A DNA stretch of 64,000 nt, from the NCBI RefSeq assembly GCF_009796765.1, contig NZ_CP047023.1, positions 3,517,501 through 3,581,500 on the forward strand. Reading direction: 5' to 3'. Shown one piece after another: positions 14,698-51,925 of this stretch. Position 1 is the first letter of the stretch. The number at the start of each line of letters is the position of its first letter. Under the pieces are notes generated by a model, which did no database searches, was not told where the DNA came from, and saw only the letters and a list, made by a program, of their open reading frames with translations. A program made the translations under genes and the position numbers. Origin of the DNA: Paraglaciecola sp. L3A3 (lineage in GTDB: Bacteria; Pseudomonadota; Gammaproteobacteria; Enterobacterales; Alteromonadaceae).

Positions 14698-15084
14698 TTA
14701 AACATTCACTTTATATTTTAAATCTTGCACTTCATCGCCTGTAATACCACGAAAGCCCCAACAGTGTTTAGGCTGTTCTTTGATGGTGATCTCTATGTCA
14801 ATCGGCGAGATATTCAGTTCTGTTTCGATGTTATGAAACAAAGATTTGATTAAGGCTTTTTTGGTCTCTATTTGCCGGCCTTCCATCATATTAATTTCTA
14901 TCACGGTATAACTATCAGAACGTCCATCAGGGTAATAAAAATCAGACTTATCTAAAGGGATAAATCTGTGTGCCCTTTTGTCTTCGGGCATACCGAGCAC
15001 ATCTTGCATTGATTGATGAATGACATCTGAAAACTTAGCTTTAATTGGGTTTAGGTTTTCTTTAATTCCATATATTACGATCAT
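14698..15084 (-). CDS. Tautomerase family protein
   Basis: A 128-residue protein starting MIVIYGIKENLNPIK, with HRFIPLDKSDFYYP, GRSDSYTVIEINMMEGR and a KALIKSLF helix, the arrangement of the longer tautomerase-superfamily (4-oxalocrotonate tautomerase-like) proteins. The usual catalytic Pro1 is not present after the initiating methionine, so classic tautomerase chemistry is doubtful. It appears to be transcribed alone; the upstream gene on this strand is separate. A conserved family of unknown physiological role is the safest reading. Confidence 0.7.
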   Translation of the reverse strand: MIVIYGIKENLNPIKAKFSDVIHQSMQDVLGMPEDKRAHRFIPLDKSDFYYPDGRSDSYTVIEINMMEGRQIETKKALIKSLFHNIETELNISPIDIEITIKEQPKHCWGFRGITGDEVQDLKYKVNV

Positions 15085-24738: not shown

Positions 24739-24921
24739 TCAACTATTCAACATAAAAACGCCGCACAAATATTCTTCCACCTATGCCAACAAGGTATCTA
24801 CCTTAGACTATGCGACGAAAAAAACGCCCTAAGGTTTGGCGTTCCACAACAAGAACAATTCATTCGTTTAGAGCTGTCGTTAAAATCCTTACGAATTACC
24901 AATAATAAAATGTTAGACTAA
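24739..24921 (+). pseudogene. C-terminal fragment of a cobD (threonine-phosphate decarboxylase) paralogue
   Basis: Translating from 24739 gives a 60-codon run without stops whose middle, QIFFHLCQQGIY then LRLCDEKNALRFG, aligns with the end of the intact CobD at 6629 (QIFHQLCQQGIY, VRLCDEQNALRFG). Twenty bases are identical (24821-24840 and 7563-7582) while flanking codons differ at synonymous sites. It lacks the start, the PLP lysine and most of the fold and ends at TAA 24919-24921. This is a remnant of a duplicated or transferred cobD copy rather than a gene. Confidence 0.85.
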
Positions 24922-36908: not shown

Positions 36909-38165
36909 CTAGCCATAAACAGGGAAAGCTTCACACAAAGCGACAACTTCACCTTTAACACGAGCAATCACAGCTTGATCGTTAATGTTATCCAACACAT
37001 CACAGATCCAGTTAGCCACTTGTTTTGCTTGCTCTTCTTTAAAACCGCGACGTGTGATAGCCGGAGAACCAATACGTAAACCACTGGTCACAAACGGTGA
37101 ACGTGGATCATTAGGTACAGAGTTTTTATTCACTGTAATGTTAGCCGCTCCTAGTGCCGCGTCAGCATCTTTACCAGTGTATTCTTTGCCAATCAAATCT
37201 AATAAGAACAAGTGATTGTCGGTTCCGCCAGACACAACTTTGTGTCCACGTTCTTGAATAACAGCCACCATAGCTTTGGCGTTTTTCACCACTTGCTGTT
37301 GGTACACTTTAAATTCTGGTTGTAACGCTTCTTTAAATGCCACGGCTTTAGCAGCAATCACGTGACACAAAGGACCACCTTGTCCACCAGGGAAAACCGC
37401 ACTATTTAGCTTTTTATAAATAGCTTCATCGCCACAAGCAGATAGAATCAAACCACCACGAGGACCCGCTAAGGTTTTGTGAGTAGTAGTAGTGACAACG
37501 TGTGCATGAGCCATAGGGCTTGGATAAACACCCGCTGCTACTAAACCTGCAACGTGCGCCATATCAACTAATAGATATGCACCTACTTTGTCAGCGATTT
37601 CACGGAATTTCTGCCAATCAACAATACCTGAATAAGCAGAGAAACCGCCGATGATCATTTTAGGTTTATGTTCAATGGCCAAAGCTTCAACTTGCGCCAT
37701 ATCGATTTCACCCGTATCTGGGTTTAATCCATATTGAACCGCATTGTAAGTTTTACCTGAAAAACTAACAGATGCGCCGTGAGTCAAGTGACCACCGTGA
37801 GCTAAGCTCATGCCTAAAACAGTATCACCAGCATTCAATAACGCCATAAATACAGCTGAGTTAGCTTGTGAACCAGCATGTGGCTGAACGTTAGCATAAT
37901 CACAACCGAACAATTGTTTAGCACGTTCAATGGCTAGATCTTCAGCAATATCTACGTATTCACAACCACCGTAATAACGTTTGTGAGGATACCCTTCGGC
38001 ATATTTGTTAGTTAGCTGAGAGCCTTGGGCTTCAAGCACACGTGGGCTGCAATAGTTTTCAGAAGCAATGAGTTCAATATGTTGCTCTTGGCGTAGGTTT
38101 TCATGTTGAATTGCTTGGTACAATTCTGGATCGAAATCAGCAATATTCATATCACGTGTAAGCAT
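36909..38165 (-). CDS. glyA: Serine hydroxymethyltransferase
   Basis: GlyA interconverts serine and glycine with tetrahydrofolate. The 418-residue protein carries [10 protein letters not shown], the [17 protein letters not shown] block, and [14 protein letters not shown] with the PLP-binding lysine. ATG 38165 gives [15 protein letters not shown], as in related proteins. A clean terminator follows. Confidence 0.97.
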
Positions 38166-38307
38166 TAGGTTTCCTCAAAATCAGGGATATATAAAAAGGG
38201 AAATAAAACAGCGGTCATTTTAGTGATTTTTACACATTTGTATACTTGCAATCGGGCATGAGAAACAACCAAAAGTTGTAACGCAAACCCGACAGTATTT
38301 GTAGACC

Positions 38308-39303
38308 TTAAAGTGCTTCGATTTCTGCACAAAATTGCAGACCAATTTGTTGACGAACTTCATCCATAATTTGGATAATGCCGATACTTTCATCGTGGGT
38401 CATCAAGTCACTAAAATGCTTACCGGCTTGGATACAACGCATTGATTCTTCTATTTGATATTCAAATCCGTTTACTTGATGTGGCATATCAATGGTTTCA
38501 ACTAAACCATTTAAATCATAGATATGTGCTTGGTCGGTATCCCAAAACATAGCCGGCAACACGATATTGCCGTCTGAGCCAACAATAGTCATGGTATTTG
38601 GACAATGGCCTGTAGCTGAACAAGTAAACTGAGAATAACGTCCTGACGGATAATGCATGTTGACCAAAGTACTTTCGTCTATTTGTCTTTCACCTACGCG
38701 CCCCATAGCTTGGATCACATTAGGCTGTTCACCAAGCAAAGCTTGACTAACCGCTATGGGATATAATCCCAAATCTAACAAAGCTCCGCCACCTAGTTTA
38801 GGATCGTACAAGCGCGTTTCTTTTCTATGTTGAAAAGCAAAACCAATGGTTGAAGTGATATACTGAATATCGCCTATTACACCTTGCTCAATTTTTTCTT
38901 TAACCTTGGCTAAACAAGGCATAAACCGAGTCCAAATAGCTTCTTGTAAAAATAAATTTTTTTGCTGAGCGAGTTTTGTCAAAATCTGAATTTGTTGGGT
39001 ATTGATGGTGGATGGTTTTTCCAACAATACATGTTTACCTGCTTCTAGACATAACTTAGCTTGGGGATAATGAAAACTATGGGGCGTGGCAATATAAATA
39101 ATATCGATATTTGGATCATTCACCAAGTCTTCATAACTAGTATAAACAGTAGGAACATTATAGGTTTTAGCGAACGCCTGACCCCGTTCAACCGAACGAC
39201 TCGCTACAGCAGTTAGCTTACCATGCTCTGACTGACTGATTGCTTCAGCAAATGTTTGTGCAATACTACCTGGGCCTAACACTCCCCAATTCATTGTTTT
39301 CAT
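38308..39303 (-). CDS. Gfo/Idh/MocA family oxidoreductase
   Basis: A 331-residue NAD(P)-dependent sugar or cyclitol dehydrogenase. The Rossmann start NWGVLGPGSIAQTFAEA is near residue 5, HVLLEKPSTIN carries the EKP motif, and the C-terminal domain has GGGALLDLGLYP. The exact substrate is open. The start may be ATG 39303 or ATG 39294. A 13-bp inverted repeat sits in its promoter region. The gene stands alone. Confidence 0.88.
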   Translation of the reverse strand: MKTMNWGVLGPGSIAQTFAEAISQSEHGKLTAVASRSVERGQAFAKTYNVPTVYTSYEDLVNDPNIDIIYIATPHSFHYPQAKLCLEAGKHVLLEKPSTINTQQIQILTKLAQQKNLFLQEAIWTRFMPCLAKVKEKIEQGVIGDIQYITSTIGFAFQHRKETRLYDPKLGGGALLDLGLYPIAVSQALLGEQPNVIQAMGRVGERQIDESTLVNMHYPSGRYSQFTCSATGHCPNTMTIVGSDGNIVLPAMFWDTDQAHIYDLNGLVETIDMPHQVNGFEYQIEESMRCIQAGKHFSDLMTHDESIGIIQIMDEVRQQIGLQFCAEIEAL

Positions 39304-39624
39304 ATTATTGATGTTTCCTTATGGCTAAGTACCAATTTAATGTCTAATTATTGGCATCTAATAATTAGACATAATTTTTAAAGAAGATAGTTTACTTATA
39401 TGAATCGATATTAATCAATTATTTAACTTAAATTACTAATTGGAATTGATATCGACAATTGTTTTTAAATGTTTTTCCATTGTTTTTCTATGCACAAGTA
39501 TTGGCGAATTGGTATTAAATAAACCTAAACACTAGAAATAAACTTAAAACAAAACTACACAATACCTTTTACCCAGCAGGCAGGGTGAATTAAACTATCT
39601 AAAATTTATCTAGAGAAACAATAA
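39304..39624. other. Divergent spacer between the oxidoreductase and ettA
   Basis: The 321-bp spacer has the long inverted repeat at 39340-39372 near the oxidoreductase side and AT-rich sequence beyond it that must hold both promoters. An AGAGAAAC precedes the ettA ATG. No coding signal is seen. Confidence 0.5.
39340..39372. promoter_or_regulatory. Long operator-like inverted repeat upstream of the oxidoreductase
   Basis: Perfect 13-base arms (ATGTCTAATTATT and AATAATTAGACAT) flank 7 bases. It lies 37-69 bp before the oxidoreductase start. Its size fits a dimeric repressor/activator site; a hairpin in the 5' leader is the alternative. Confidence 0.55.
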
Positions 39625-41292
39625 ATGGCACAATACGTATACAGCATGTTACGGGTCGGAAAAGTCGTTCCACCTGGTAAACATATCTTAAAAAATATCT
39701 CTTTAAGCTTTTTCCCTGGCGCAAAAATCGGCGTATTAGGTTTGAATGGCTCAGGTAAATCAACCTTACTTAAAATAATGGCTGGCATAGACACGGATAT
39801 TGAAGGTGAAGCTATCCCGCAAACTGGATTAAAAATTGGTTATCTTCCTCAAGAACCACAACTAGACGAAACTAAAGACGTGCGTGGCAACATTGAAGAA
39901 GCAGTACAAGACGTAGTCCATGCACTTAAACGCATTGATGAAGTTTATGCTGAATATGCCGAAGAAGGCGCTGACTTTGATGCTTTAGCCAAAGAACAAG
40001 GTGAACTTGAAGCGATTATTCAGTCGAAAGACGGCCATAACTTAGACAACGCTTTAGAACGTGCAGCCGATGCATTACGCCTGCCACCATGGGATGCGGA
40101 TGTTAGCAAATTGTCTGGGGGTGAACGTCGCCGCGTCGCACTATGCAAATTATTACTCGAAAAACCAGAAATGTTATTACTCGACGAACCAACCAACCAC
40201 TTGGATGCTGAGTCTGTGGCATGGTTAGAACGTTTCTTACATGACTATGAAGGTACTGTCGTAGCCATTACCCATGATAGGTATTTCTTAGATAACGTAG
40301 CCGGCTGGATCTTAGAGCTAGACCGTGGCCAAGGTATACCTTGGGAAGGTAACTACTCTTCATGGTTAGAACAAAAAGATGCCCGTCTTGAACAAGAAGA
40401 AAAAACCGAAAGTGCACGACAGAAATCGATTAAAACAGAATTAGAATGGGTTCGCTCAAATGCTAAAGGTCGACAATCGAAAAGCAAAGCACGTATGGCT
40501 CGCTTCGAAGAGCTAAATACTGGCGATTACCAAAAACGTAACGAAACCAGTGAATTATTTATTCCACCTGGCGAGCGTTTAGGTGACAAAGTATTTGAAG
40601 TCACAGGTTTACAAAAATCTTATGGTGATCGGTTATTGATCGACGACCTAAATTTCAAAATGCCTAAAGGTGCCATAGTCGGTATTATCGGCCCGAACGG
40701 TGCGGGTAAATCAACCCTATTCAGAATGTTAACCGGTCAAGAACAAGCGGATGCAGGTACAATTGATATAGGCGACACAGTGCAATTAGCCAGTGTAGAT
40801 CAATTCCGTGACCATATGGACGGAAAAAATACCGTTTATAAAGAAATTTCTGATGACTCAGACATTATCCGAATTGGTAATTTTGAATTAAACAGCCGAG
40901 CTTATTGTGGACGTTTTAACTTTAAAGGCTCAGACCAACAGAAGTTTATTAAAGACTTGTCTGGTGGTGAACGTAACCGAGTGCATTTAGCCAAACTGTT
41001 AAAAGCTGGCGGCAATGTATTGTTACTGGATGAGCCAACCAATGACTTGGATGTTGAAACCTTACGAGCATTAGAAAATGCCCTATTAGAGTTTCCTGGT
41101 TGTGCCATGGTTATTTCCCATGACAGGTGGTTCTTAGATAGAATTGCCACCCATATCATGGATTATCGTGACGAAGGTAAAATTAACTTTTTTGATGGTA
41201 ATTACACTGAATACTCTGCTTGGCTTAAAGCGACATATGGAACAGATGTTGTTGAACCTCATAGATTGAAATACAAAAAGATTAGTAAGTAA
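39625..41292 (+). CDS. ettA: Energy-dependent translational throttle protein EttA (ABC-F)
   Basis: EttA is a ribosome-bound ABC-F ATPase that gates the first elongation step by cellular energy state. Two ATPase cassettes are seen: GLNGSGKST with LSGGERRRVALC, LLDEPTNHLD, and GPNGAGKST with LSGGERNRVHLA, LLDEPTNDLD. Between them is the charged linker, and the first cassette carries the arm insertion (ETKDVRGNIEEAVQDV). At 555 residues it is a normal EttA. Its transcript ends at a strong hairpin. Confidence 0.97.
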   Translation: MAQYVYSMLRVGKVVPPGKHILKNISLSFFPGAKIGVLGLNGSGKSTLLKIMAGIDTDIEGEAIPQTGLKIGYLPQEPQLDETKDVRGNIEEAVQDVVHALKRIDEVYAEYAEEGADFDALAKEQGELEAIIQSKDGHNLDNALERAADALRLPPWDADVSKLSGGERRRVALCKLLLEKPEMLLLDEPTNHLDAESVAWLERFLHDYEGTVVAITHDRYFLDNVAGWILELDRGQGIPWEGNYSSWLEQKDARLEQEEKTESARQKSIKTELEWVRSNAKGRQSKSKARMARFEELNTGDYQKRNETSELFIPPGERLGDKVFEVTGLQKSYGDRLLIDDLNFKMPKGAIVGIIGPNGAGKSTLFRMLTGQEQADAGTIDIGDTVQLASVDQFRDHMDGKNTVYKEISDDSDIIRIGNFELNSRAYCGRFNFKGSDQQKFIKDLSGGERNRVHLAKLLKAGGNVLLLDEPTNDLDVETLRALENALLEFPGCAMVISHDRWFLDRIATHIMDYRDEGKINFFDGNYTEYSAWLKATYGTDVVEPHRLKYKKISK

Positions 41293-41305
41293 TCTGAATA
41301 TTGCT

Positions 41306-41335
41306 AACCAACGCAAGCTTCGGCTTGCGTTGGTT
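41306..41335. terminator. Bidirectional terminator between ettA and the binding-protein gene
   Basis: A 13-bp perfect stem (AACCAACGCAAGC with GCTTGCGTTGGTT) is closed by a stable TTCG tetraloop. It starts 14 bases after the ettA stop and touches the stop codon of the converging gene, so it can serve both. Confidence 0.85.
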
Positions 41336-42170
41336 ATTTATCATTCTGATTTTTAACGAGATAACTTAATTCTTTATGTGGACGGTTTTCATGTAAAGCC
41401 TGCCAAAAAGCTGAAACTATAGTTTTATTTTTTTGATAGTAATCTAAGTTGAATGGAGCATATACGTTACTTTTCAGTACAAAACCTGAAGTGACACTTA
41501 GTTTCTCTGACACATCTGGTTGTTTCACAAATGCATCGGCAAACGATCTAGCAATCACATAACCGTCTAAACGACCATTTTCAATTAATTTAGCAGCCGT
41601 TTTTAAATCTGCATTTACAGGGCTTAACAGATTTTGTTGTTGTAAAAATTGATAAGCCACATAACCAAATGGAGCACTGAGTCCGCTTACAACTCTTGTT
41701 CGATAAGTATTAATATTAAGTGAGTTATCTTGATAAAAAATTGAAGGTGTATTTGTTTCGACTGTATCAAAAGGGCCATTTTTCTTAACTATAATGGGAT
41801 ATTCGTTTTGATACATATATTGTGGATCATCTGGAAAAGCAAACTCAGTCTGTCGTTCGGGGGTTTTAATCATAAGCAGTAATCCTTGTAACTCACCACT
41901 TTTCACTAAGGATTGACACCTTAACCAAGGAAATCGAACAAATTTTACTTGTAAATCTGCCTGCTGTGCTGATTTCACAACAATATCGATTAATATCCCT
42001 TCAACATTATCTTGCCCATTGGGTCCTGCTTGCAGATAGGGTTTATAATCGTTATTTTCAATACATAGTTCAATTTTTTTATTCGCTTGTGCTATTTCGC
42101 ATATGCCTAGTAGCACAACAAATAAAAGTACCTTGAATATATTAAATCTTACGCCTAAAACTTTAATCAC
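41334..42170 (-). CDS. Periplasmic solute-binding protein (family 3-like), orphan
   Basis: A 278-residue exported protein. A signal peptide ends near AQA-NK; IELCIENNDYKPYL, VEGILIDIVVKSAQQADL, VRFPWLRCQSLVKSGEL and a late KTAAKLIENGRLDGYV match family 3 binding proteins. No transporter genes are adjacent; the nearest genes are ettA and the sulfated-glycan locus. It is the second orphan of this type here (see 24970), and the two are distant relatives. Confidence 0.75.
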   Translation of the reverse strand: MIKVLGVRFNIFKVLLFVVLLGICEIAQANKKIELCIENNDYKPYLQAGPNGQDNVEGILIDIVVKSAQQADLQVKFVRFPWLRCQSLVKSGELQGLLLMIKTPERQTEFAFPDDPQYMYQNEYPIIVKKNGPFDTVETNTPSIFYQDNSLNINTYRTRVVSGLSAPFGYVAYQFLQQQNLLSPVNADLKTAAKLIENGRLDGYVIARSFADAFVKQPDVSEKLSVTSGFVLKSNVYAPFNLDYYQKNKTIVSAFWQALHENRPHKELSYLVKNQNDK

Positions 42171-42282
42171 CTAATTATTTTTATCGACAGTGCCTTACTA
42201 TCAACTCATACGACTAGGTTAACCATTAGACATTAGTCTATTGTAACAATTATCAGATAAAGCTTAATTCAATATTTTTAAA

Positions 42283-42312
42283 GAATAAAACAATATCACT
42301 ATTGTTTTATTC
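42283..42312. terminator. AT-rich 13-bp hairpin downstream of the sulfatase operon
   Basis: Perfect arms GAATAAAACAATA and TATTGTTTTATTC surround TCAC, about 70 bp past the last gene of the operon. It has no T-tail, so termination is likely but not certain. Confidence 0.55.
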
Positions 42313-42322
42313 CCTTGCTCTA

Positions 42323-42337
42323 ATCAACAGCCCCTAA
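42323..42337. repeat. Solo end of the MITE-like element
   Basis: ATCAACAGCCCCTAA is identical to the right end of the element at 19165-19307. No left end is found next to it, so this is a remnant or an independent short relic. Confidence 0.55.
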
Positions 42338-42379
42338 AGTTATAGGCTTTAATTTTTCTGCTGTTTGATTTTTACACAA

Positions 42380-44056
42380 CTAATAAACCATCACTGGTCC
42401 TTCTAACACTGCAGACGGTTGATCTACTTGGGGTAAGGTAATACGGACATTAACCTTATTCAGTCGTTCTTGTATTTTTTGTCCCCACAAAGTCAGAGTA
42501 GTTTTTTCATAAGGTTTTAACTCAGGCACTTTACCTTTAGCAAACAACTGCCATTGGCCATCTTTTTGATATTCAATATTCACAGTGGTCGCTTTGGCTG
42601 GTGCTTGGCCAAAGTTTTCAATTTCTATCTCAGCCTTTAAAGATTTAGCATTGAGTGAAAATTCAGGAAACTTGCTTGATAAGTGCGGTAATTGATATTC
42701 CACCCAAGGTAGGCGGGCGAAGCCAAACAAAGGTTCTCCTTGGTTAGTTTTACCCAACAATTTAGCCGCAAAATTGTCGCTAGTAAAACCATGGCCCTCG
42801 CCAGCAAATGTAATCACTAAATCTTCACCTTGCTCAGTAGTTTTTAGCACTTTACTGCCACGGCCAAAATTGACTTCCTCAGATGCACCAAAGCGTAATG
42901 AACTTAAGTCGATATCTTCTTGCGGATCAAAACCGGGCTCAGCTTTGACTAACAAAGATATTTCTGCAGTATCTGTCGATATTTGTTGTGGACTCAAAAA
43001 CTCAAGTAAACGCCCTACTCTTAAGGGGATACTAATATTTTTAGAGCTGTGATTATCACTGCCCATATCTTGTTTTTTAACCGTATCATTAACGGCAAAA
43101 TTAGCTTGATAAGCTCGGCCATATTGATCTTGTAATACTTTAATTCGCTCGAACTTATACCAGTCTTCTACTCGGCCATCTTGATGTTTAGCAATGCCGG
43201 GTAAGTAAGCGGCGCCGGGGTCAAGTTTCCAGTTAAAGCCATCTTTAGAGCGCATGTAATAAGCCACTCGACCTAACCAATCGTTTACAATCAGGTGATA
43301 TTGTACATCTGACTTCCACACAACTGGATCTTCATAACGACCGTCATAGGGTGGATACACGGTTTGGGTTGATACCAAATTATACGGCGGCAAACCTGAT
43401 TCACTGATCCAGACCCCACCACCTCGGCCCACCATTAACATCGAGCCATCTTCCCGTTGGGTAAAGGTATTATTTGACATATGATCAACTAACTCACGCT
43501 GGCGAGTATCGTAAGTAAAAGGTTTCTTTTGCCACGGGCCACTCAAATCTTCTGCTAAATAATAATAAAAATCAGAAAATTTATGCACGTATAAAAAATA
43601 GCGACCATCTTTTAATTGCTGCATTTCAGGGTTATGCCCAGGCCCAACTACTTGCGCGACTTTATACGGGCCAATTGAATTGTCTGATACAGCATGTACC
43701 ACTTCTGAACGAGGCCATGCCATGTGACCTTTTGGATCATCTTCACGCCAGCGGCAAACAAATAAATGATGTTGACCTTGCTCATCGATATGAATATTAC
43801 CGCCCCAATAAGACCATTCTGGATCTTCTAAACCATTATTCAGATGACGAGGTTTAACTCCCTCTAGTCCCCACACATCAGAAGATAACTCCCCTACATC
43901 GGGCAAAGGCAAAAATCGATCAATAAAACGACTGCCTTGCACTAAACCGTCCCATTCTTTGGGTAATTCTCTTTCAACAATTTCAGCCCAAGAAGGCGCA
44001 ATTGCAGCAAATGATAGCGCCACTGTAAAAGCGAGATGTTTTTTCATTGATTTCAT
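42380..44056 (-). CDS. Exported beta-propeller protein of a sulfated-glycan locus (GH43/GH117-like)
   Basis: A 558-residue exported protein (signal peptide ending near SWA-EI). Its first part shows YWGGNIHIDEQGQHHLFVCRW (split here), ARSEV-type WPRSEVVHAVSDNSIGPY, GHNPEMQQLKDGRYFLYVH and RYEDPVVW, the recurring blade motifs of five-bladed propeller glycosidases such as GH43 and GH117. The last about 170 residues look like an added beta-sandwich. The exact family is not certain. ATG 44056 has AGGGAC just before it, better than ATG 44074. It is the last gene of an operon behind two sulfatases, so it likely acts on a desulfated oligosaccharide. Confidence 0.65.
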   Translation of the reverse strand: MKSMKKHLAFTVALSFAAIAPSWAEIVERELPKEWDGLVQGSRFIDRFLPLPDVGELSSDVWGLEGVKPRHLNNGLEDPEWSYWGGNIHIDEQGQHHLFVCRWREDDPKGHMAWPRSEVVHAVSDNSIGPYKVAQVVGPGHNPEMQQLKDGRYFLYVHKFSDFYYYLAEDLSGPWQKKPFTYDTRQRELVDHMSNNTFTQREDGSMLMVGRGGGVWISESGLPPYNLVSTQTVYPPYDGRYEDPVVWKSDVQYHLIVNDWLGRVAYYMRSKDGFNWKLDPGAAYLPGIAKHQDGRVEDWYKFERIKVLQDQYGRAYQANFAVNDTVKKQDMGSDNHSSKNISIPLRVGRLLEFLSPQQISTDTAEISLLVKAEPGFDPQEDIDLSSLRFGASEEVNFGRGSKVLKTTEQGEDLVITFAGEGHGFTSDNFAAKLLGKTNQGEPLFGFARLPWVEYQLPHLSSKFPEFSLNAKSLKAEIEIENFGQAPAKATTVNIEYQKDGQWQLFAKGKVPELKPYEKTTLTLWGQKIQERLNKVNVRITLPQVDQPSAVLEGPVMVY

Positions 44057-44073
44057 ATTGTCCCTTTTATTCA

Positions 44074-45750
44074 TTATTCTTGTTTTTGTAATTCAGTAAA
44101 AACAGCAGCAGTGGCTTTGTCGCGATAAGGCCAACCTTCGTTACTTTGTTTACTGCCTGCTGTGGTTCTGCCATCTTTTATGGCGGTAGCTAATAAAGTC
44201 ACCAATTGTTGCACTTTTTCTGGATACTGTAATTCAAGGTTTGTGCTTTCACTGGGATCATTTTTTAAATTATACAACTGCACTAACTTTGCTGGTGTAA
44301 CTTGATTTTGCCAAGGTAACGCCCAGCCGCCGCCATCGCCTGTTGTCATAAGAAGCTTCCAATCCCCTTGCCTAATCGCAAATTGACCTTTTATAGAATG
44401 GTGAATAGTAAAAGGTCTAACGGCTTTATCATTGCCCATTAAATTGGCATAAAACGAAAATGAATCTTCCGCAGCGTTATCAGGGATCTGCTGCTTTTTG
44501 CCTAACATGTCGGCAAATGTGGCAAAAATATCAGTGCTATTAATAGTTTGTTCACTGGTTTTCCCCGCTGCTATTTTATTAGGCCACTTCACAATAAAAG
44601 GGACTCTATGACCACCTTCATAAATATTCGCTTTGGCACCACGATATGGGCCTGAGGGGCGATAACCCGCTTTGATCATTTTTGGAATTTCTACATAGGG
44701 CGCAAAACCATTGTCAGCCGTGAACACCACCATAGTATCGTCTTCTAGGCCTGAGGCTTTTAACTCAGCCAATATTTGCTCAACCACCCAATCAGTTTCA
44801 GCCATAAAATCAGCATAGGTGCTGTATTGAGGATAACGACCTTTAAACTTTTCTCCCGGTGTAACTGGGGTATGCGGCGAAGTTAGCGCTACGTATAAAA
44901 AGAATGGCTGATCTTTATTATTTGTGGCTTTATCTTTAATGTAGCGACGGGACTCAGTTGCCCATTTTGCTAGGACAGTATTGGCATTGAAGTCTTTATC
45001 AGCGGCACCAATACGCTTGTAATCATTATATTCGTTATGGGCAAAGCCTTTATTAACCGTGGGGATTGATGTCGCTTGGTTATCCTTTAAATAAACATAA
45101 GGAGGCATATCTAAAGACGACAAAATGAAAAATGCCTGGTCGAACCCTTGATCAACAGGGCCGTTTTTGAAAGGTTGGCTGTAATCAATTAACCAAGAAC
45201 TAGGTTGTTTGTACTTTTGTTCAATATGCAATTCAGGATCATTGCTTTTATCTAACAGTTGCCAATCAACCCCCAAATGCCATTTTCCCACCAGCCCCGT
45301 TTGGTAGCCTGATTGTTTTAGCATCTTGGCTAAGGTTAAACGATTTGCATCCATTAACGCTGGAGACGTAGCCTTCACCAAAGCGGCACTTTTTAAACGG
45401 CTGCGCCAATTGTATCGACCAGTTAAAATACTGTATCGTGTAGGTGTACATACCGAAGAACTGGTATGAGCATCGGTAAATTGCATACCTTGCTCTGCTA
45501 AGCTATCAATCGCAGGAGTGGGGATTAAACCACCAACATAACTTGGTTCTCCAGCCCCCATGTCATCCACCAAAATAAAAACAATATTCGGTTTTTTGTT
45601 AGTCAGCACTCCACTTTTGGCAGGTGCTTGAGTGACCGTTTGGCCACAAGACAATAAACCTAAAGTGCTTAGAATTAGCATTAAAAATGCAACGACTCGC
45701 ACACATTGTGTCGATTGGAACATATTTAGAATTGTTTTTTTTAAGTTCAT
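44074..45750 (-). CDS. S1 family sulfatase (lipoprotein)
   Basis: A 558-residue formylglycine-dependent sulfatase. The modified cysteine is C101 in CTPTR, followed by YSILTGRYNWRSRLKS; metal ligands are in NIVFILVDDMG and later TADNGF. A lipobox LLSC (Cys35) suggests anchoring to the outer membrane. Maturation needs a formylglycine-generating enzyme that is not in this window. It overlaps the end of the upstream sulfatase and is followed by the propeller gene. The substrate is probably a sulfated algal galactan or fucan, but the sequence does not decide which. Confidence 0.92.
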   Translation of the reverse strand: MNLKKTILNMFQSTQCVRVVAFLMLILSTLGLLSCGQTVTQAPAKSGVLTNKKPNIVFILVDDMGAGEPSYVGGLIPTPAIDSLAEQGMQFTDAHTSSSVCTPTRYSILTGRYNWRSRLKSAALVKATSPALMDANRLTLAKMLKQSGYQTGLVGKWHLGVDWQLLDKSNDPELHIEQKYKQPSSWLIDYSQPFKNGPVDQGFDQAFFILSSLDMPPYVYLKDNQATSIPTVNKGFAHNEYNDYKRIGAADKDFNANTVLAKWATESRRYIKDKATNNKDQPFFLYVALTSPHTPVTPGEKFKGRYPQYSTYADFMAETDWVVEQILAELKASGLEDDTMVVFTADNGFAPYVEIPKMIKAGYRPSGPYRGAKANIYEGGHRVPFIVKWPNKIAAGKTSEQTINSTDIFATFADMLGKKQQIPDNAAEDSFSFYANLMGNDKAVRPFTIHHSIKGQFAIRQGDWKLLMTTGDGGGWALPWQNQVTPAKLVQLYNLKNDPSESTNLELQYPEKVQQLVTLLATAIKDGRTTAGSKQSNEGWPYRDKATAAVFTELQKQE

Positions 45751-47213
45751 TATTTTTTCTTTTTAAAGCTAATATTTGCGTTTTTATAATCGTATATGCC
45801 TGAGCGTACAGTCGTGGCAGTGAATGGGGCATGATCATTAAATTGTTGTTGAGTTAGTTTCATCTGCGTCACTAACTCAGCTAATTTTCCTTGATACTGT
45901 GCTGAGCCCACTAGATCATGTAATTCATTTGGATCATTTTCTAAATCAAAAAGCTGATTTTTATCGAGCTCTGTGTAACGAATTAACTTCCATTTACCAT
46001 CAGAAATAGAACGAAACTTATCTTTAAACGCATTAAACATATAATCTCTAACTTCTGTTTTCTCTCCCTGAATAAGCGGTTTTAAGCTTTGTCCTTGCAC
46101 ACTTTTTGGTACAGCTAGATCAACAAGGTCAACTAAGGTCGGAAAAATATCGTACAGGTAAGTTAAGGCCTGTGAGTTGGAGTTTCCTTTAATATTAGGT
46201 CCTGATATCACTAAAGGAGCTTTAATTGCATCTTCATATAAACTTTGTTTGGCCATCAATCCATGACTTCCCATTGATAAACCATGATCAGAAGCAAATA
46301 CAATATAAGTATTATCATATTCACCACTGGCTTTTAACGCTTTGATGACTCGCCCAATTTGCTCATCCATTTGGCTAATTAATGCATAATACTTTTTAAT
46401 TTCATCTTTTATTTGTGACGCTTCTCTTGGAAATTTTACTAACTTCTCAGCCCTAACTTTTAATTCACCTTGGTCAAAAGGATGATAAGCCATGAAATTC
46501 ATAGGTAGCGGAATGTCTTTGTTATCATACATGCGTAAATATTTTTCAGGTGGAGTACGAGGGTCGTGAGGGGCAGTAAAAGACACAAACATAAAAAAGG
46601 GTTTATCTTGTTCTCGATGGTTTACAAAATTAACCGCCGCATCGGCAAAAAGAGTGCTCGAAAATCCCTTAACCGTTTGATAATCATTTTTACCGTATTT
46701 TTCTGAGGTTTTATCAAATGGCCAAATTTTAACGTCAGTATGGCTGCCCATACCGGTCATAAATAAATTGTCACCAGAATCAAAACCCGTTTTAAAAGTA
46801 GGCGCATCTTGATGCCACTTCCCAGTCATAAAGGTGTGATAGCCATTCTGACGAAAATATTCAGGCATAGTGATAGTGTCCACTTTGCCCTGTTCCCCTT
46901 CTGGTGCTTCCCAAGGTACTAAATAACTACTGGGTATATTGAACAAGGGCCTGCCAGTTAAGATCATAGCTCGACTTGGCGAACAAACTGCAGCTGAGGT
47001 AGACCCCATATTATAGTTATTACGAAACGACACCCCTGATTTAACTAGAGCGTCAAGGTTAGGGGTAATGATGTGTTGATTACCAAAGGCAGCGATCGCA
47101 TCTGCTCTTTGATCATCAGACAAAATAAACAGAATATTAGGTGTTTTAGCACTGGCGATATTGCTAACGCTAGCAGTTAAAATACACAGCCATAACAAAA
47201 TTAATTTTTTCAC
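45750..47213 (-). CDS. S1 family sulfatase (periplasmic), first gene of the operon
   Basis: A 487-residue sulfatase with the formylglycine cysteine in CSPSR (SAAVCSPSRAMILTGRP), the metal site FILSDDQRADAI and FASDHGL. The SDDQR-type start resembles choline/iduronate-sulfatase-like subfamilies. GTG 47213 is chosen over ATG 47240: AAGGAAA stands seven bases before it and the signal peptide MKKLILLWLCILTASV is then complete. It heads the operon sulfatase-sulfatase-propeller. A 25-bp element shared with the other sulfatase gene lies 84 bp upstream. Confidence 0.92.
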   Translation of the reverse strand: MKKLILLWLCILTASVSNIASAKTPNILFILSDDQRADAIAAFGNQHIITPNLDALVKSGVSFRNNYNMGSTSAAVCSPSRAMILTGRPLFNIPSSYLVPWEAPEGEQGKVDTITMPEYFRQNGYHTFMTGKWHQDAPTFKTGFDSGDNLFMTGMGSHTDVKIWPFDKTSEKYGKNDYQTVKGFSSTLFADAAVNFVNHREQDKPFFMFVSFTAPHDPRTPPEKYLRMYDNKDIPLPMNFMAYHPFDQGELKVRAEKLVKFPREASQIKDEIKKYYALISQMDEQIGRVIKALKASGEYDNTYIVFASDHGLSMGSHGLMAKQSLYEDAIKAPLVISGPNIKGNSNSQALTYLYDIFPTLVDLVDLAVPKSVQGQSLKPLIQGEKTEVRDYMFNAFKDKFRSISDGKWKLIRYTELDKNQLFDLENDPNELHDLVGSAQYQGKLAELVTQMKLTQQQFNDHAPFTATTVRSGIYDYKNANISFKKKK

Positions 47214-47296
47214 TTCAGCTTTCCTTGGATACATCAACATACAATTGACTTTAATTTATTCACTCCAAACTAAACCAAATTAAACTTACAACATAT

Positions 47297-47321
47297 GTTT
47301 TACATGTAAATTTACCGCTAA
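47297..47321. promoter_or_regulatory. Shared sulfatase-locus regulatory element, copy 1
   Basis: A 25-base element that begins GTTTTACATG and ends TTTACCGCTAA, containing the palindrome TTTACATGTAAA (47299-47310). It is 24/25 identical to 50341-50365, in the same orientation to its gene. It lies between the first sulfatase and the divergent regulator, where it may control both. Confidence 0.7.
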
Positions 47322-47482
47322 ATAAAAAAATTAACCATATTTTTCAATGTATTAAATAATAAGATTAAGTAAAGACAATTTATTTGCTGCTGATCTATAC
47401 ATTTCCTTTACATATTATGGCAACTAATTCCTTTCGAATCGTATATGATAAGAACTTAACCTATTAAAATTGATAAAGATTT

Positions 47483-48784
47483 ATTACGTGGTTCAAGAAT
47501 ATTTTTTCGCCTTCAAAAACTGAGTTATTAGCGCAACTAGAGCGCATTAATAAAAGCAACGCGCTAGGGCGTTCAGAAAACTATAAGCGGCTGGTGCATT
47601 TTTTAGTGAGCCAAGCAGTGGCTGGCATAGAACAAGGTGAACAACACCCTACTCCGCCCAAAGAAATAGAAATAGCCATTGAGGTATTTAACAAAGGCGA
47701 AGATTACAACCCGCTAAATGACTCATCTGTGCGTGTATATATTTCTAATCTTCGCAAAAAATTGGCAACCTATTATGCCCTTGAAGGCAAAGATGAAACC
47801 TTTCATATTTCAATTCCCCCCGGTAGTTATGGTTTAACCTTTACCCCTGTAATTGATGAAAAAGACAATAAACTTACCTCTGAAGAAACCACCACCGAGC
47901 AACCGACATCTGCGGTAAAAGCATCAAAAATTAAACCGAATAAGTTGATGCAATTAGTGGCATTAGTTTTAGTACTAATCTCTATCGTGCTGAATGTTTA
48001 TTTGTTTACTCAACTGCAAGAGCAGCCAAAACATATTAATCGAACTGTGCAAGCTCACCCTTTATGGCAAGATTTACAAAATAACGGCAAACCCACCTTA
48101 ATCGTACTGGGGGATTTATTTGTTTACCGAGAGAAAGATGCCAACAATAAAAATGATCGCCTAGTACGGAGTTTTTATATTAATAATAAAGAAGACTTAA
48201 TTCGGTATGTACAAAGCTCGCCTGAAAAAAGCCAATTAATCGCTAAGGCTGGGCGCAAAATTTTGCCTAAAAGCAGCTTTTTTGTATTAAGAGAGTTATT
48301 ACCTTTGTTTGATAGTAAAAGTCAGTTTGAGGTCAAGCTGGCTTCTGAAATCAGCTCCCAAGATATTGCTCAAAGTAACCTAATTTATATTGGCCTAAAT
48401 CGCTCTATGGGAATATTAAAAAGTTACACCCAACATTCGAATTTTAATCACAATGGTAAAACTCTGTTCAATAAAACCAGCGGTGAACAATATAATGTCA
48501 GTGGTGAATTTTTAAGAGAATATACGGATTATGGACTGTTCTCAAAATTCAGCGGCCCAGCTGACAACGTTATATACCTGATTTCAGGTTTTACTGATTC
48601 ATCTATCATGCTGATGGCCAAAACGTTAACCCAAACATCATTCTTAGCTGATTTAACTGCCAAACATACTAATCAAGACTTTGACGCAGATAATCACTTC
48701 GAAATACTCTTCGAAGTGGACAGTTTTAATCACACAGATCTCAATTCAAGCATGTTATTTAGCGGCGGTAAAAACACTGAATAA
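47483..48784 (+). CDS. Membrane-bound winged-helix regulator of the sulfatase locus (one-component)
   Basis: The N-terminal part is a DNA-binding winged helix: LLAQLERINKSNALGRSENY, then EIEIAIEVFNKGEDYNPLND, VRVYISNLRKKLATYYALEG and IPPGSYGL. A single membrane helix (LVALVLVLISIVLNVYLF) follows, then a periplasmic domain of about 270 residues, so the plan is CadC/ToxR-like. The only standard start in frame, GTG 47594, would remove the first helix. The frame is open from 47477, so the real start is upstream: ATT at 47483 (used here, 433 residues) or GTG 47488 joined by a one-base shift at the T6 run 47502-47507. Divergence from the sulfatase operon suggests it senses glycan signals and controls the locus. 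Confidence 0.75.
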   Translation: MTWFKNIFSPSKTELLAQLERINKSNALGRSENYKRLVHFLVSQAVAGIEQGEQHPTPPKEIEIAIEVFNKGEDYNPLNDSSVRVYISNLRKKLATYYALEGKDETFHISIPPGSYGLTFTPVIDEKDNKLTSEETTTEQPTSAVKASKIKPNKLMQLVALVLVLISIVLNVYLFTQLQEQPKHINRTVQAHPLWQDLQNNGKPTLIVLGDLFVYREKDANNKNDRLVRSFYINNKEDLIRYVQSSPEKSQLIAKAGRKILPKSSFFVLRELLPLFDSKSQFEVKLASEISSQDIAQSNLIYIGLNRSMGILKSYTQHSNFNHNGKTLFNKTSGEQYNVSGEFLREYTDYGLFSKFSGPADNVIYLISGFTDSSIMLMAKTLTQTSFLADLTAKHTNQDFDADNHFEILFEVDSFNHTDLNSSMLFSGGKNTE

Positions 48785-48891
48785 AAGCGATTGAATAAAA
48801 TGTGCTGTACGCTCTAATAGCCCATATACAAACTGACAGTACTCATTGGTATATGCTGACTGTCATGTTTAGATTTAACTGAAGTACGCGC

Positions 48892-50247
48892 TTAATTATC
48901 GTAAGGTGAATCACGTAACGCATTGTTAAACATGGCTTTCACTTCTTTTTGCATGGCTTGTAATTTTTGCGGATATTGTTGGGCAATATTGTGCTTTTCT
49001 TGTGGATCTGACGATAAATCGTATAATTCATCGTTAACCAACTTCCAAGAGCCTTGTCTTAACGCTAGGCCATTACGTACAACAACACCTTTCTTTTTAT
49101 CTAGGTTTCCCCAAAAAATAGTGCGCTCAGCCTGCGCTTTGTGCTCAAACAATACCGGGCCAAGATCAATACCATCCAAATGAAGCTCCTTAGGTAAGAT
49201 GACATTAGCTTGAACTAAATTGGTAGGCATAATATCCATACTGGTAACAAGCGCATTTGAAATGCCAGGTTTCACCATTTTAGGCGCCCAAACAATGCCC
49301 GGTACTCTATGACCCCCTTCATATAGATCCGCTTTTTTGCCTCTAGTAAGCTCGCTCACAGTATGATTCGCGGTTGTCCCTCCATTATCTGAAACAAACC
49401 AAATAATAGTGTTGTCTGCCAAACCCAGCCTTTCTACCTGTTGACGAATTTTTCCTACACCTTCATCAGCAGCCAAAACTATGTGTTGCATTAACCAGTC
49501 ATTATCACCTGGCTTTTCGCTGTAGGTTGGCTGACCGATTCCCCATTTAGGTACTTTTCCTTTATTAGGTCCGCGTTTAATTTTAGAGCCGCGAGCTTGT
49601 AATGGATCATGAGGAGCACCGTGTGATACATAGATAAAAAATGGTTTATCTTTATTGTTTTCAATAAATTCAAGGGTGTTATCAGTAATAAGATCAGAAT
49701 GATAACCCAGCTGTTCATTCAGTTTATCATTCTGCCACCAGTCAAAAGTCCCCACTCGGTCATATTGAAAATGTGCATCGATATTGCCGCTAATAAAACC
49801 ATTAAATTGATCAAATCCATGATTCAAGGGATTAAATTCTGCTTTGTATCCCAAATGCCATTTACCAAAGATAGCACTCACGTAGCCGCTTTGCTTTAAA
49901 GCTTCAGGAAAGGTCAATACCTGCTTAGGTAACCCTCTTTGGTAGTCCTCATGTTCTGGTGAAGCATTAAAAACCAAATGGCTACCGGTGCGTTGTGGGT
50001 ACAATCCAGTCATCAATGAAGCTCGAGTGGGCGTACACACCACTCCATTCGAGTGATAATCCATCAGTTGTAACCCTTCTGCAGCCAATCTGTCTATTTC
50101 AGGGGTTTGGTAATATTGATTGGCAAAACTGCTGACTCCGCCGTAGCCCATATCATCAACCATGATGACTATAATGTTGGGTGGCTGTTTGGCGTTTGAA
50201 ATAAAACTAATTAACAGAAAAAAACATATACTCGCAACTCGATTCAT
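48892..50247 (-). CDS. S1 family sulfatase (periplasmic), separate unit
   Basis: A 451-residue sulfatase with signal peptide (cleavage near SNA-KQ), metal site IIVIMVDDMGYGG and formylglycine cysteine C71 in CTPTR followed by ASLMTGLYPQRTGS. FVSDNGGTTA gives further ligands. The ATG has AGGA eight bases upstream. It faces the regulator gene tail to tail and has its own copy of the 25-bp element 94 bp upstream. It differs from the other two sulfatases, so the locus can remove at least three kinds of sulfate ester or link. Confidence 0.93.
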   Translation of the reverse strand: MNRVASICFFLLISFISNAKQPPNIIVIMVDDMGYGGVSSFANQYYQTPEIDRLAAEGLQLMDYHSNGVVCTPTRASLMTGLYPQRTGSHLVFNASPEHEDYQRGLPKQVLTFPEALKQSGYVSAIFGKWHLGYKAEFNPLNHGFDQFNGFISGNIDAHFQYDRVGTFDWWQNDKLNEQLGYHSDLITDNTLEFIENNKDKPFFIYVSHGAPHDPLQARGSKIKRGPNKGKVPKWGIGQPTYSEKPGDNDWLMQHIVLAADEGVGKIRQQVERLGLADNTIIWFVSDNGGTTANHTVSELTRGKKADLYEGGHRVPGIVWAPKMVKPGISNALVTSMDIMPTNLVQANVILPKELHLDGIDLGPVLFEHKAQAERTIFWGNLDKKKGVVVRNGLALRQGSWKLVNDELYDLSSDPQEKHNIAQQYPQKLQAMQKEVKAMFNNALRDSPYDN

Positions 50248-50340
50248 TTTTACGTTCCTGAGTATTAACGTCTATCGCAGCCGTTAAATTAGAGGTTCCA
50301 GAGAGCTAAAAAAGTAAACTAAATTGACCAAAGAGAATAG

Positions 50341-50365
50341 GTTTTACATGTTAATTTACCGCTAA
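50341..50365. promoter_or_regulatory. Shared sulfatase-locus regulatory element, copy 2
   Basis: Identical to the element at 47297-47321 except one base (T for A in the centre), again upstream of a sulfatase gene. The flanking sequences differ, so the match is not just a duplicated promoter region. Confidence 0.7.
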
Positions 50366-50513
50366 TATCATAAGCTGATTTGATGGTCTGCACTGCATAT
50401 ATACTATGCACAGCAGAATATGAACCAGTTGGATTGACGAGAGTTGAATTGACGAGAGCTAGATTAAGACGACAGTTTAAGTCGTCGTCCAAATCAGAGG
50501 TAAATAAAAGCAT

Positions 50514-51452
50514 TTATTTTTTAATCAGCCATATATTTCGAAACTTCACTGGATTGTGGTGATTTTGGAAATAGATAAAGCCATTCGCTTGTTCGGCATT
50601 GTTTTCACGACCACGAGTGGGTTTAGATACTTCTACACTGTCATGAATTTTAATACCGTTATGAAAGACAGTCATCTTTGCATTCGTCACTTTTTTGCCA
50701 TCAACAAAACGCGGAGCGGTAAAATCAATGTCAAAACTTTGCCAATGTAAGGCAGGCAAGCTCAAATTAAGATCCGGCTCTCTTACTTCATAAATAGTTG
50801 CGTTCCAGGTATAAGGCTTTTTAATTAACGTCTCGGTTTTCCACGCAGATTTATCACTATCGTGAGCAAAACTGTCACTTATTTGTACTTCGTAAGCATT
50901 ATTTAAATAGATGCCACTATTGCCTCTATCAGGATGACTAATAGCTAATGTGGGTTTGTATGGGGTAAGGAATTCAACATGCAAAGTGAGATCTTGATAA
51001 ATGTCGGTGCTACGAAAACCGGCCAAAACCGCGTCGCCAACTTTTTTTGCGCCTTTTATTTTATCGGTAGATGTTCCATCAAATAAAACTATTGCCTCTG
51101 CTGGAGCTGGGTTAGCACCGGCTTTAATACTACGATCTATTTTTCTGTAGCTGGCTAATAATTGTTTGATGCGTTTTTCATCATACCACTGATGGCTAAC
51201 AGCAGAACCATCCCAGCCTGCCCCCGGCAATCCACCTTGATAAAGTGAAGTATAAAATTTTCCCACCGTAGACAATACTTGTAAGGCGTCTTTGCCTTTT
51301 ATGTATTCACCTTGATATTGAAAGTGAGGTTGTTCTTTCATCGCGACATCGTAATCTGTCCAAGTCGGCACCTTGTCAGGCTTTTTAGCTTGAGCAGCGA
51401 TAGAAAAAACAGCAATAAAAGCACTAAGTAAAATATATTTTGATACATTCAT
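50514..51452 (-). CDS. DUF1080 (3-keto-disaccharide hydrolase-like) exported protein
   Basis: A 312-residue exported protein (signal peptide near QA-KK). After an alpha-helical N-terminal part, the DUF1080 beta-sandwich is seen: EAIVLFDGTSTDKIKG, DLTLHVEFLTPY, RGNSGIYLNNAYEVQISDSF and FIYFQNHHNPVKFRNIWL. DUF1080 proteins are lectin-fold enzymes reported to split 3-keto-glycosides. It lies upstream of the third sulfatase on the same strand, separated by 266 bp, and is probably part of the same glycan pathway. A weak third version of the shared element is at 51599-51615. Confidence 0.85.
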   Translation of the reverse strand: MNVSKYILLSAFIAVFSIAAQAKKPDKVPTWTDYDVAMKEQPHFQYQGEYIKGKDALQVLSTVGKFYTSLYQGGLPGAGWDGSAVSHQWYDEKRIKQLLASYRKIDRSIKAGANPAPAEAIVLFDGTSTDKIKGAKKVGDAVLAGFRSTDIYQDLTLHVEFLTPYKPTLAISHPDRGNSGIYLNNAYEVQISDSFAHDSDKSAWKTETLIKKPYTWNATIYEVREPDLNLSLPALHWQSFDIDFTAPRFVDGKKVTNAKMTVFHNGIKIHDSVEVSKPTRGRENNAEQANGFIYFQNHHNPVKFRNIWLIKK

Positions 51453-51925
51453 TTTTATAATTCTTTAGTAAAAAAGATAATTAATCTAGGTTAGGTTGTC
51501 GTCGAAAGATTTATTTTCATAACACTCTGTCGATACTCAGTCTAGGATTAGACAGATGGCATTCCATTTAGCTTTATTAACGACATAAAGCCAATAAGTT
51601 TACAATTAAATCTACAAGTTTATATTTAAATTAACATAAGTAAAAAACTAAAGCAGCAGTGATTGGAAGATTGGAGCTGAAAAACAGTTAAAAGCAAATA
51701 CGAGATACGAGCAAAGCATAGAGGCAAAGAATTTAAATCACTGAGGTAATAAGTAAAAAGCAATCTATAAACGCTAACTTAACAATAAGATAAAATAATC
51801 GTGGCACCTAAATAAGGGAGGCAAGAGTTTCGAATTAGTAGCTACTTTCCCCCTATCGTTATCAATTTATTAAAGTGAGTTCATTTTGCTGTGAACTCAC
51901 TGCAGTTTATTAACATCAAACAATA
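51453..51925. other. Spacer upstream of the DUF1080 gene
   Basis: The 473-bp spacer carries the DUF1080 promoter, a TTTACAATTAAATCTAC site (51599-51615) that resembles the shared sulfatase-locus element at 14 of 17 positions, and a purine-rich repeat remnant with ACGAGATACGAGCAAAG (about 51697-51716). No gene is seen. Confidence 0.4.

What the first reader, a model, noticed from the sequence alone, without database searches (positions are those of the whole stretch)
47297..50365. A near-identical 25-bp element lies upstream of both sulfatase transcription units
Copies at 47297-47321 (84 bp before the first sulfatase) and 50341-50365 (94 bp before the third) match at 24 of 25 bases while their flanks differ. 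The element contains the palindrome TTTACATGTAAA and ends in ACCGCTAA. A weaker version (14 of 17) is at 51599-51615 before the DUF1080 gene. The membrane winged-helix regulator lies between the two copies, so it is the natural candidate to bind them and make one regulon from units that are not cotranscribed.
Basis: partly seen in the sequence, partly recalled or inferred. Interest (0 to 1): 0.75.

Follow-up and report, generated by a model that had tools for sequence, protein, structure and literature searches.

The report
Paired switch sites for sulfatase genes
In a marine bacterium, two sulfatase gene units seem to share one control switch: a pair of near-identical DNA sites around the gene of a membrane-anchored regulator whose relatives in other bacteria carry a similar site beside their own genes.

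Summary
Two copies match at 24 of 25 bases; 2000 shuffles of the two upstream regions never exceeded 20. The repeat is really a 55-nt, 80%-identical, promoter-like unit. In the 5.31-Mb genome only these two copies lie within 3 of 23 mismatches, although it has 85 sulfatase-domain matches: a two-promoter local switch, not a general sulfatase regulon. The regulator between them is a divergent OmpR/PhoB-fold winged helix with a predicted membrane helix and outer domain. Upstream DNA of its homologs, window excluded, carries a TTAACNGTTAA-like family motif. Motifs learned from 45 homolog regions alone put both elements within the top 100 of about 128,000 window positions in 32 of 32 runs (e.g. ranks 5 and 6); shuffled regions did so in 4 of 240, other genes' upstream regions in 0 of 80. 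This ties element to regulator. Best model: a ToxR/TcpP-like membrane activator. The stressed palindrome is broken in copy 2, the DUF1080 'weaker copy' is doubtful, and binding itself is untested.

The parts
47297..47321 (-). Element copy 1 (target strand TTAGCGGTAAATTTACATGTAAAAC), upstream of the S1-S2-564aa genes and in the divergent region shared with the regulator gene
   Evidence: 24/25 with copy 2; 16-mer core exact only twice in the genome (23-mer); family-motif hits within 47303-47326
50341..50365 (-). Element copy 2 (TTAGCGGTAAATTAACATGTAAAAC), upstream of sulfatase 3
   Evidence: family-motif hits within 50343-50367
47267..47296 (-). Downstream half of repeat unit 1, with a candidate -10 TAGTTT (47272-47267), 53 nt before the S1 start
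   Evidence: 55-nt repeat D1; 20/30 in register, hexamer position; the -10 is an inference
50311..50340 (-). Downstream half of repeat unit 2, with a candidate -10 TACTTT (50316-50311), 63 nt before the S3 start
   Evidence: the -10 is an inference
47299..47315 (-). GTAAA-N7-GTAAA direct repeat (12-bp period) in copy 1; same in copy 2 at 50343-50359
47483..48784 (+). Regulator, 433 aa: winged helix (12-122), hydrophobic, presumably membrane, helix (154-180), C-terminal alpha/beta domain inferred to be periplasmic. No ATG/GTG/TTG start in the expected place; ATT at 47483 fits the homologs' N-termini
45750..47213 (-). Sulfatase 1 (S1; CSPSR motif), GTG start at 47213 (my choice; the ORF tool starts at 47240)
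   Evidence: PF00884
44074..45750 (-). Sulfatase 2 (S2; CTPTR), shares a base with S1, likely co-transcribed
42380..44074 (-). 564-aa protein, no Pfam family at E 0.001, shares a base with S2
48892..50247 (-). Sulfatase 3 (S3; CTPTR), 26-27% identical to S1
50514..51452 (-). DUF1080 / 3-keto-disaccharide hydrolase; linked by gene neighbourhood in homolog loci; its 'weaker copy' is doubtful

Best explanation
The element is an operator within a repeated promoter unit. The regulator encoded between the two copies is a membrane-anchored one-component regulator with an OmpR/PhoB-type winged helix, and it binds both copies through their TTAGCGGTAAATTWAC core (a variant of its family's TTAACNGTTAATT motif), possibly with a second contact at the GTAAA 12 bp further on. 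From about -61 to -37 of the candidate promoters it recruits RNA polymerase to the S1-S2 operon and to S3 when its periplasmic domain senses a signal, probably a sulfated-glycan fragment. Copy 1, in the divergent region, may also control the regulator gene. Shown: sequences, uniqueness in the genome, shared promoter-like unit, family motif and its match, predicted fold of the DNA-binding domain. Inferred: binding, activation rather than repression, transcription start, membrane topology, signal.
For: Near-identity beyond chance and in-register downstream similarity between promoters of genes only 26-27% identical, so old shared ancestry without selection is an unlikely cause. Only two genome copies, both close to the regulator gene. 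Upstream regions of homologs carry a motif: EM log-likelihood 65.0-73.1 (width 11) and 110.0-126.4 (width 18) for 38 regions, against at most 53.7 in 300 and 77.8 in 60 shuffled sets; 78.6-88.9 and 131.5-151.2 for all 45 regions, against at most 52.4 and 86.2 in 120 shuffled sets each. Both elements fall within the top 100 of about 128,000 window positions in 10 of 12 runs with 38 regions and 32 of 32 with 45, against 7 of 300 (width 11), 0 of 60 (width 18) and 4 of 240 shuffled sets and 0 of 80 sets of other genes' upstream regions. Best-scoring width-18 runs of the 45-region set with mechanical starts: ranks 5 and 6. OmpR/PhoB fold: the first 12 Foldseek hits are response-regulator DNA-binding proteins. 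Neighbourhood: DUF1080 or sulfatase genes near part of the homologs, six sulfatase matches around one in a Melioribacteraceae MAG.
Against: No binding or expression data. Single-homolog matches to the element are weak (best p 0.008 for L072, next 0.039, of 17 homolog regions tested), and a few other AT-rich window 18-mers match the L065/L071/L072 block as well as the element does. Motif runs vary: two of 12 with 38 regions put one element below rank 100 (425; 285), and in one good solution (ranks 35 and 22) another S3-upstream site, AGCCGTTAAAT 31 nt before the gene, scores higher. Direct repeats with a 12-bp period are not enriched in homolog upstream regions (59 vs 71 expected). Exact core or close ortholog locus was not found elsewhere, so conservation of the element itself could not be tested. 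In the closest homologs the site lies next to the regulator's own start, which also fits auto-repression. The regulator lacks a canonical start codon.
Confidence: 0.62

Rival explanations
1. The regulator binds the two elements but as a repressor (or autorepressor) released by the signal, not as an activator.
For: In the closest homologs (L065-L067, L071, L072) the best match to the element lies within about 6 nt of the regulator's own start codon, a typical repressor position; copy 1 lies in the divergent region.
Against: Both window copies lie upstream of the candidate core promoter, at about -61 to -37, the activator layout of TcpP at toxT (-55 to -37, PMC8546550). The transcription starts are not measured.
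Confidence: 0.18
2. Another regulator of the cell recognises the element; the position of the winged-helix gene between the copies is coincidence.
For: Many AT-rich sites belong to other families; no direct binding data.
Against: A regulator with only two sites in 5.3 Mb is expected to be local; homolog-derived motifs find both sites. No other DNA-binding family was recognised among the 10 proteins scanned at 36909-51452; the rest of the window was not scanned, so this is a partial check.
Confidence: 0.13
3. The repeat is a copied promoter fragment without a specific regulator.
For: The similarity covers 55 nt and stops abruptly on the far side.
Against: No further copies in the genome, conservation uneven (24/25 then 20/30), both copies at similar distances from a sulfatase start, and a match to the regulator-family motif.
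Confidence: 0.06

Closest known systems
TcpP of Vibrio cholerae at the toxT promoter (ToxR-like transmembrane regulators)
   Same: Membrane-bound winged-helix regulator, few genomic sites (three ChIP peaks, passage of PMC4829181), direct-repeat AT-rich site TGTAA-N6-TGTAA at -55 to -37 (passages); here GTAAA-N7-GTAAA starting at about -55 and -43 of candidate promoters.
   Different: 12-bp rather than 11-bp repeat, a dyad-like family core, a partner protein was not looked for, different periplasmic domain, targets are sulfatases. The similarity is one of working, not shown kinship beyond the fold.
CadC/ToxR-type one-component transmembrane transcription regulators (survey PMC10269533, passages seen)
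   Same: N-terminal OmpR/PhoB-fold winged helix, one predicted membrane helix, C-terminal domain probably outside the cytoplasm.
   Different: PF00486 match is below the gathering score (15.0 vs 26.2 bits), so a survey that relies on Pfam models could miss this group; sensor domain has no Pfam family and only weak fold similarity to BcsB (E 0.033).
PhoB / OmpR-family response-regulator effector domains
   Same: Fold (SaeR, PhoB, ArlR, RpaA, CovR, CssR as the first 12 Foldseek hits; that all of these are OmpR/PhoB-type is recalled).
   Different: E-values 0.018-0.29, TM-score by query length 0.38-0.43, no receiver domain; apparently membrane-tethered.

Membership tests
ToxR/CadC-like transmembrane transcription regulators | N-terminal winged-helix DNA-binding domain of the OmpR/PhoB fold | tested here: met
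   Domain model pLDDT 91.8; first 12 PDB matches are response-regulator DNA-binding proteins, though none at E <= 0.001; recognition-helix region matches PF00486 below its cut-off
ToxR/CadC-like transmembrane transcription regulators | Single membrane helix followed by a periplasmic domain | tested here: inconclusive
   Hydrophobic helix 154-180 in the model, then an alpha/beta domain; no topology program was run
ToxR/CadC-like transmembrane transcription regulators | Pfam Trans_reg_C above the gathering score | tested here: not met
   15.0 of 26.2 bits; this is a detection rule rather than a biological requirement
ToxR/CadC-like transmembrane transcription regulators | Direct DNA binding and transcription control from the membrane | not testable with these tools
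   Needs bench work
TcpP-type operator | TGTAA-N6-TGTAA direct repeat just upstream of -35 | tested here: not met
   Here GTAAA-N7-GTAAA, 12-bp period; transcription start not known
Operator of this window's regulator family (defined here) | TTAACNGTTAA-like motif upstream of the regulator gene | tested here: met
   Enriched in homolog upstream regions; window elements are diverged variants among the top window matches

The most novel reading that the evidence does not exclude
The regulator belongs to an undescribed family of membrane-tethered winged-helix regulators, below Pfam's threshold and spread over Alteromonadaceae, Ignavibacteria-type, KSB1, Calditrichaeota and Bacteroidota genomes. 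Its own operator code (TTAACNGTTAA and variants that partly follow the recognition helix) marks its targets, and its periplasmic domain senses glycan fragments to switch on small local sulfatase/DUF1080 units, one paralog per substrate.
Probability: 0.35. Interest if true: 0.68.

Novelty: new variant of a known kind. Interest (0 to 1): 0.52.

Why it matters
This genome has 85 sulfatase-domain matches, and which signals switch on which sulfatases in such marine bacteria is largely unknown (my own knowledge, not searched for). A local regulator with a definable operator would let one assign sulfatase units to sensors by sequence. The family motif gives a code that can be tested in several phyla.

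Tried and rejected
Palindrome TTTACATGTAAA as the key: it is broken in copy 2, and its near-matches in the window are not more than chance (13 vs 9.2 expected). DUF1080 copy: nominal p 0.008 against copy 1 and by eye it keeps the 12-bp GTAGA/GTAAA spacing, but the family motif ranks it low; left as doubtful. Genome-wide regulon: only the two copies at 23-mer level. The 19-mer gave 7 further places at 3 mismatches, against 12 for the reversed control. The 16-mer core gave 39 places (2 of them the elements, both exact) against 22 for the control; I read the context of 20 of the 39: 2 are the elements, 14 lie inside ORFs and 4 between genes. Family pattern search over 295 genomes: 36 places outside the own genome, all at exactly 3 mismatches; the reversed control gave 23 by my count of the table. 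Local repeat pairs next to other homologs: none convincing; repeats in L076 look like a dispersed REP/MITE-type element. Direct-repeat spacing over 38 homolog regions: enriched at 11 (118 vs 68), 9 (114 vs 71) and 21 bp (104 vs 65), not at 12 (59 vs 71), so the 12-bp repeat of the window is not a family rule, although GTWA-N8-GTWA, a pattern chosen after looking, was in 8 of 38 vs 2.2 expected. Single-homolog matches to the element mostly not significant. One search dropped homolog L071 by a slip in the script; one search repeats it correctly and is the one used. Sigma-70 scan: 9 sites vs 17 in shuffles, not useful. Full-length model gave only weak sensor-domain matches (BcsB E 0.033; GH67 glucuronidase E 0.21 and weaker). 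DNA search of plasmids: one 120-bp match, in the regulator gene of Catenovulum adriaticum. Helix-motif correspondence as proof of binding: only partial, see report. Papers: the searches listed no paper that looked to be on this regulator group or on such a sulfatase switch (listings only, and one search showed 6 of 20); of PMC4829181, PMC8546550 and PMC10269533 I saw passages. No other literature was searched.
Full report
What was checked. The window is positions 3517501-3581500 of a 5,308,776-base single-contig genome. One genome counted as same genus (G239) has a contig of the same length (52,920) with a regulator homolog as Paraglaciecola algarum, so the strain is probably a Paraglaciecola. 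The two copies at 47297-47321 and 50341-50365 match at 24 of 25 bases. Two thousand dinucleotide shuffles of the two upstream regions gave at most 20 of 25. The repeat finder gives the natural unit: 55 nt at 80%, 47267-47321 and 50311-50365. The 30 bases on the sulfatase side match in register at 20 of 30 (p 0.0003, length chosen after looking), the far side not beyond chance (16 of 60). So what is repeated is element plus core-promoter-like region. The two sulfatases are only 26-27% identical, so unconstrained DNA from an old gene duplication should not look like this.

Anatomy. Read towards the sulfatases the element is TTAGCGGTAAATTWACATGTAAAAC. The candidate -10 hexamers TAGTTT and TACTTT lie at the same offset; taking their first base as -12 puts the 25-mer at about -61 to -37. 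This is inference; no transcription start is known, and the sigma-70 scan was uninformative.

Genome context. Only these two copies exist in the genome at up to 3 of 23 mismatches, although it has 85 sulfatase-domain matches, 84 of them above the Pfam cut-off, and 15 DUF1080-domain matches. In 295 family genomes no place outside the own genome comes closer than 3 mismatches. A locus with close relatives of these genes was not found: in that family sample the best sulfatase-3 homologs are 44-46% identical (limit 1e-80), the best regulator homolog 41%, and of 22 genomes of the genus, own included, one other has a regulator homolog. A DNA search was made only in plasmids. Conservation of the exact element therefore could not be tested.

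The regulator. ORF 47483-48784 gives a winged helix (12-122), a hydrophobic helix (154-180) and an alpha/beta domain, model pLDDT 85.6. The N-terminal domain alone (pLDDT 91.8) finds SaeR, PhoB bound to DNA, ArlR, RpaA, CovR and CssR as its first 12 folds, with probability 0.85-0.99 but E 0.018-0.29. A sequence profile finds DrrD and ArlR at E about 0.1. Pfam Trans_reg_C stays below its cut-off. Paralogs lie at three further places of the genome, and 16 of 295 family genomes, own included, have a match at E 0.001. A genome-collection scan with an alignment gave 33 loci, from Alteromonadaceae to Ignavibacteria-type, KSB1, Calditrichaeota and Bacteroidota MAGs among others.

Neighbourhood. In Catenovulum adriaticum the homolog stands divergent from a c-type cytochrome gene, a hypothetical gene and a DUF1080 gene; L065, L067, L071 and L072 have the same order by lengths and matches, and in L071 the first two were recognised as cytochrome c and DUF7133. 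With profiles made here, partly from these same loci, DUF1080 was found in 7 of the 16 Alteromonadaceae stretches L062-L077 (L064-L067, L071, L072, L077) and sulfatases in 3 (L065, L073, L074). Of the 33 loci, four of which repeat Alteromonadaceae loci, sulfatases were found in 8, among them L131 with six around the regulator. Many loci had neither. This is guilt by association, in genomes where sulfatases can be common.

The link between element and regulator. I first took 200 bp upstream of 38 of 46 distinct homologs at hand, the window left out. AACAGTTA/ACTGTTAA-type words were the three most enriched 8-mers (z 6.7-7.1, above the 6.3 maximum of 60 shuffled sets). TAACNGTTA is in 8 of 38, mean 0.3 expected, though that pattern was chosen after looking. 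An unsupervised EM motif converged on ATTNAACNGTTAATT-like solutions. The solutions, scanned over the 64 kb, rank the two elements 17 and 3 of 127,980 (width 11), 6 and 44 (width 14), 5 and 20 (width 18) and 42 and 51 (width 22); among intergenic positions at width 18 they are 1 and 4 of 15,046. In 12 repeat runs 10 put both in the top 100, the others reached 425 and 285 for one element; the best-scoring runs gave 15 and 3, and 12 and 11. Without the three closest lineages the runs with best score gave 13 and 3 or 37 and 22 (width 11) and 6 and 39 (width 18), poorer ones up to 771; with 12 gammaproteobacterial homologs alone 11 and 9, a poorer one 319 and 213. One more run gave 35 and 22 and preferred another site upstream of S3.

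Full set and controls. With all 45 homologs that have upstream DNA, 32 of 32 runs put both elements in the top 100 (lowest rank 74), with hand-set or mechanical starts alike; with mechanical starts the best-scoring width-18 runs gave 5 and 6. Shuffled sets did so in 7 of 300 (38 regions, width 11), 0 of 60 (38 regions, width 18) and 1 of 120 and 3 of 120 (45 regions, widths 11 and 18). Sets of other genes' upstream regions from the same loci did so in 0 of 40 and 0 of 40. The 45 include near-duplicates, which raise the real scores relative to independently shuffled ones. Since the two elements resemble each other, they are close to one observation, not two. A direct comparison with the block conserved in L065, L071 and L072 gives 40 of 54 matches for copy 1 (p 0.006 and 0.002 by two kinds of permutation) and 37 for copy 2 (0.03 and 0.005), but three other window 18-mers do as well or better than copy 1.

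Helix and motif. The match between recognition helix and motif variant is partial. TTAACTGTTA is in 3 of 6 homologs with (V/I)RVYISN (L122, L125, L071; not L062, L136, L140), but also in L126 and L127 with other helices. GTAACSGTTAC is in 3 of 4 with VRVH(I/V)SR (L064, L070b, L074) and in no other best site. ACCTGT(T/G)(A/G)ATTGC is in 4 of 10 with IRSYISN (L145, L146, L152, L154), with near variants in L132 and L148 (counts by me over the 38 regions). The groups are related lineages, so this is weak support. The window protein has VRVYISN; its site ATTTAGCGGTAAATTTAC looks nearest to ATTTACCCGTTAATTTAC of a KSB1 homolog (L128, VRAYISN).

Reading. Most likely the two 55-nt units are promoters activated by this membrane regulator, as TcpP, a membrane-bound winged-helix activator with very few sites, activates toxT from -55 to -37 (passages of PMC8546550; PMC4829181). 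I put binding by this regulator at about 0.8 and activation rather than repression at about 0.77 given binding, hence 0.62 overall (judgement; a draft had 0.66, lowered because the helix correspondence proved partial on recount and because the two odds must multiply). The DUF1080 gene is tied to the regulator by neighbourhood and at most by a doubtful site.

Limits. No binding, expression or start-site data; homologs are distant; the large protein database was off; the regulator's start codon is unusual (ATT), and its first residues are therefore uncertain.

Noticed in passing
window 47471-47490: The regulator ORF has no ATG/GTG/TTG between the upstream in-frame stop and its conserved N-terminus; ATT at 47483 would fit the homologs' length.
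   Followed up: partly
window 50279-50292: AGCCGTTAAATTAG, 31 nt before sulfatase 3, scores higher than the element in one family-motif solution; possible second operator.
   Followed up: no
L131 (Melioribacteraceae MAG), whole locus: A homolog of the regulator stands among six sulfatase matches within 13 kb; a good second system for testing the idea.
   Followed up: partly
L076 at about 1690-1765, 6779, 12036, 14702-14775: Dispersed element GACAGGCACACC...GTGGCTGTCAT-like in a Catenovulum plasmid, REP/MITE-like.
   Followed up: partly
L067 9497-9927: About 270 bp extra DNA between regulator and cytochrome gene compared with L066, looks like an inserted short element.
   Followed up: no
window 7506-7582 and 24764-24840: 77-bp direct repeat, 84% identical.
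   Followed up: no
window 42380-44074: 564-aa protein without a Pfam or NCBIfam family at E 0.001, directly behind S2.
   Followed up: no
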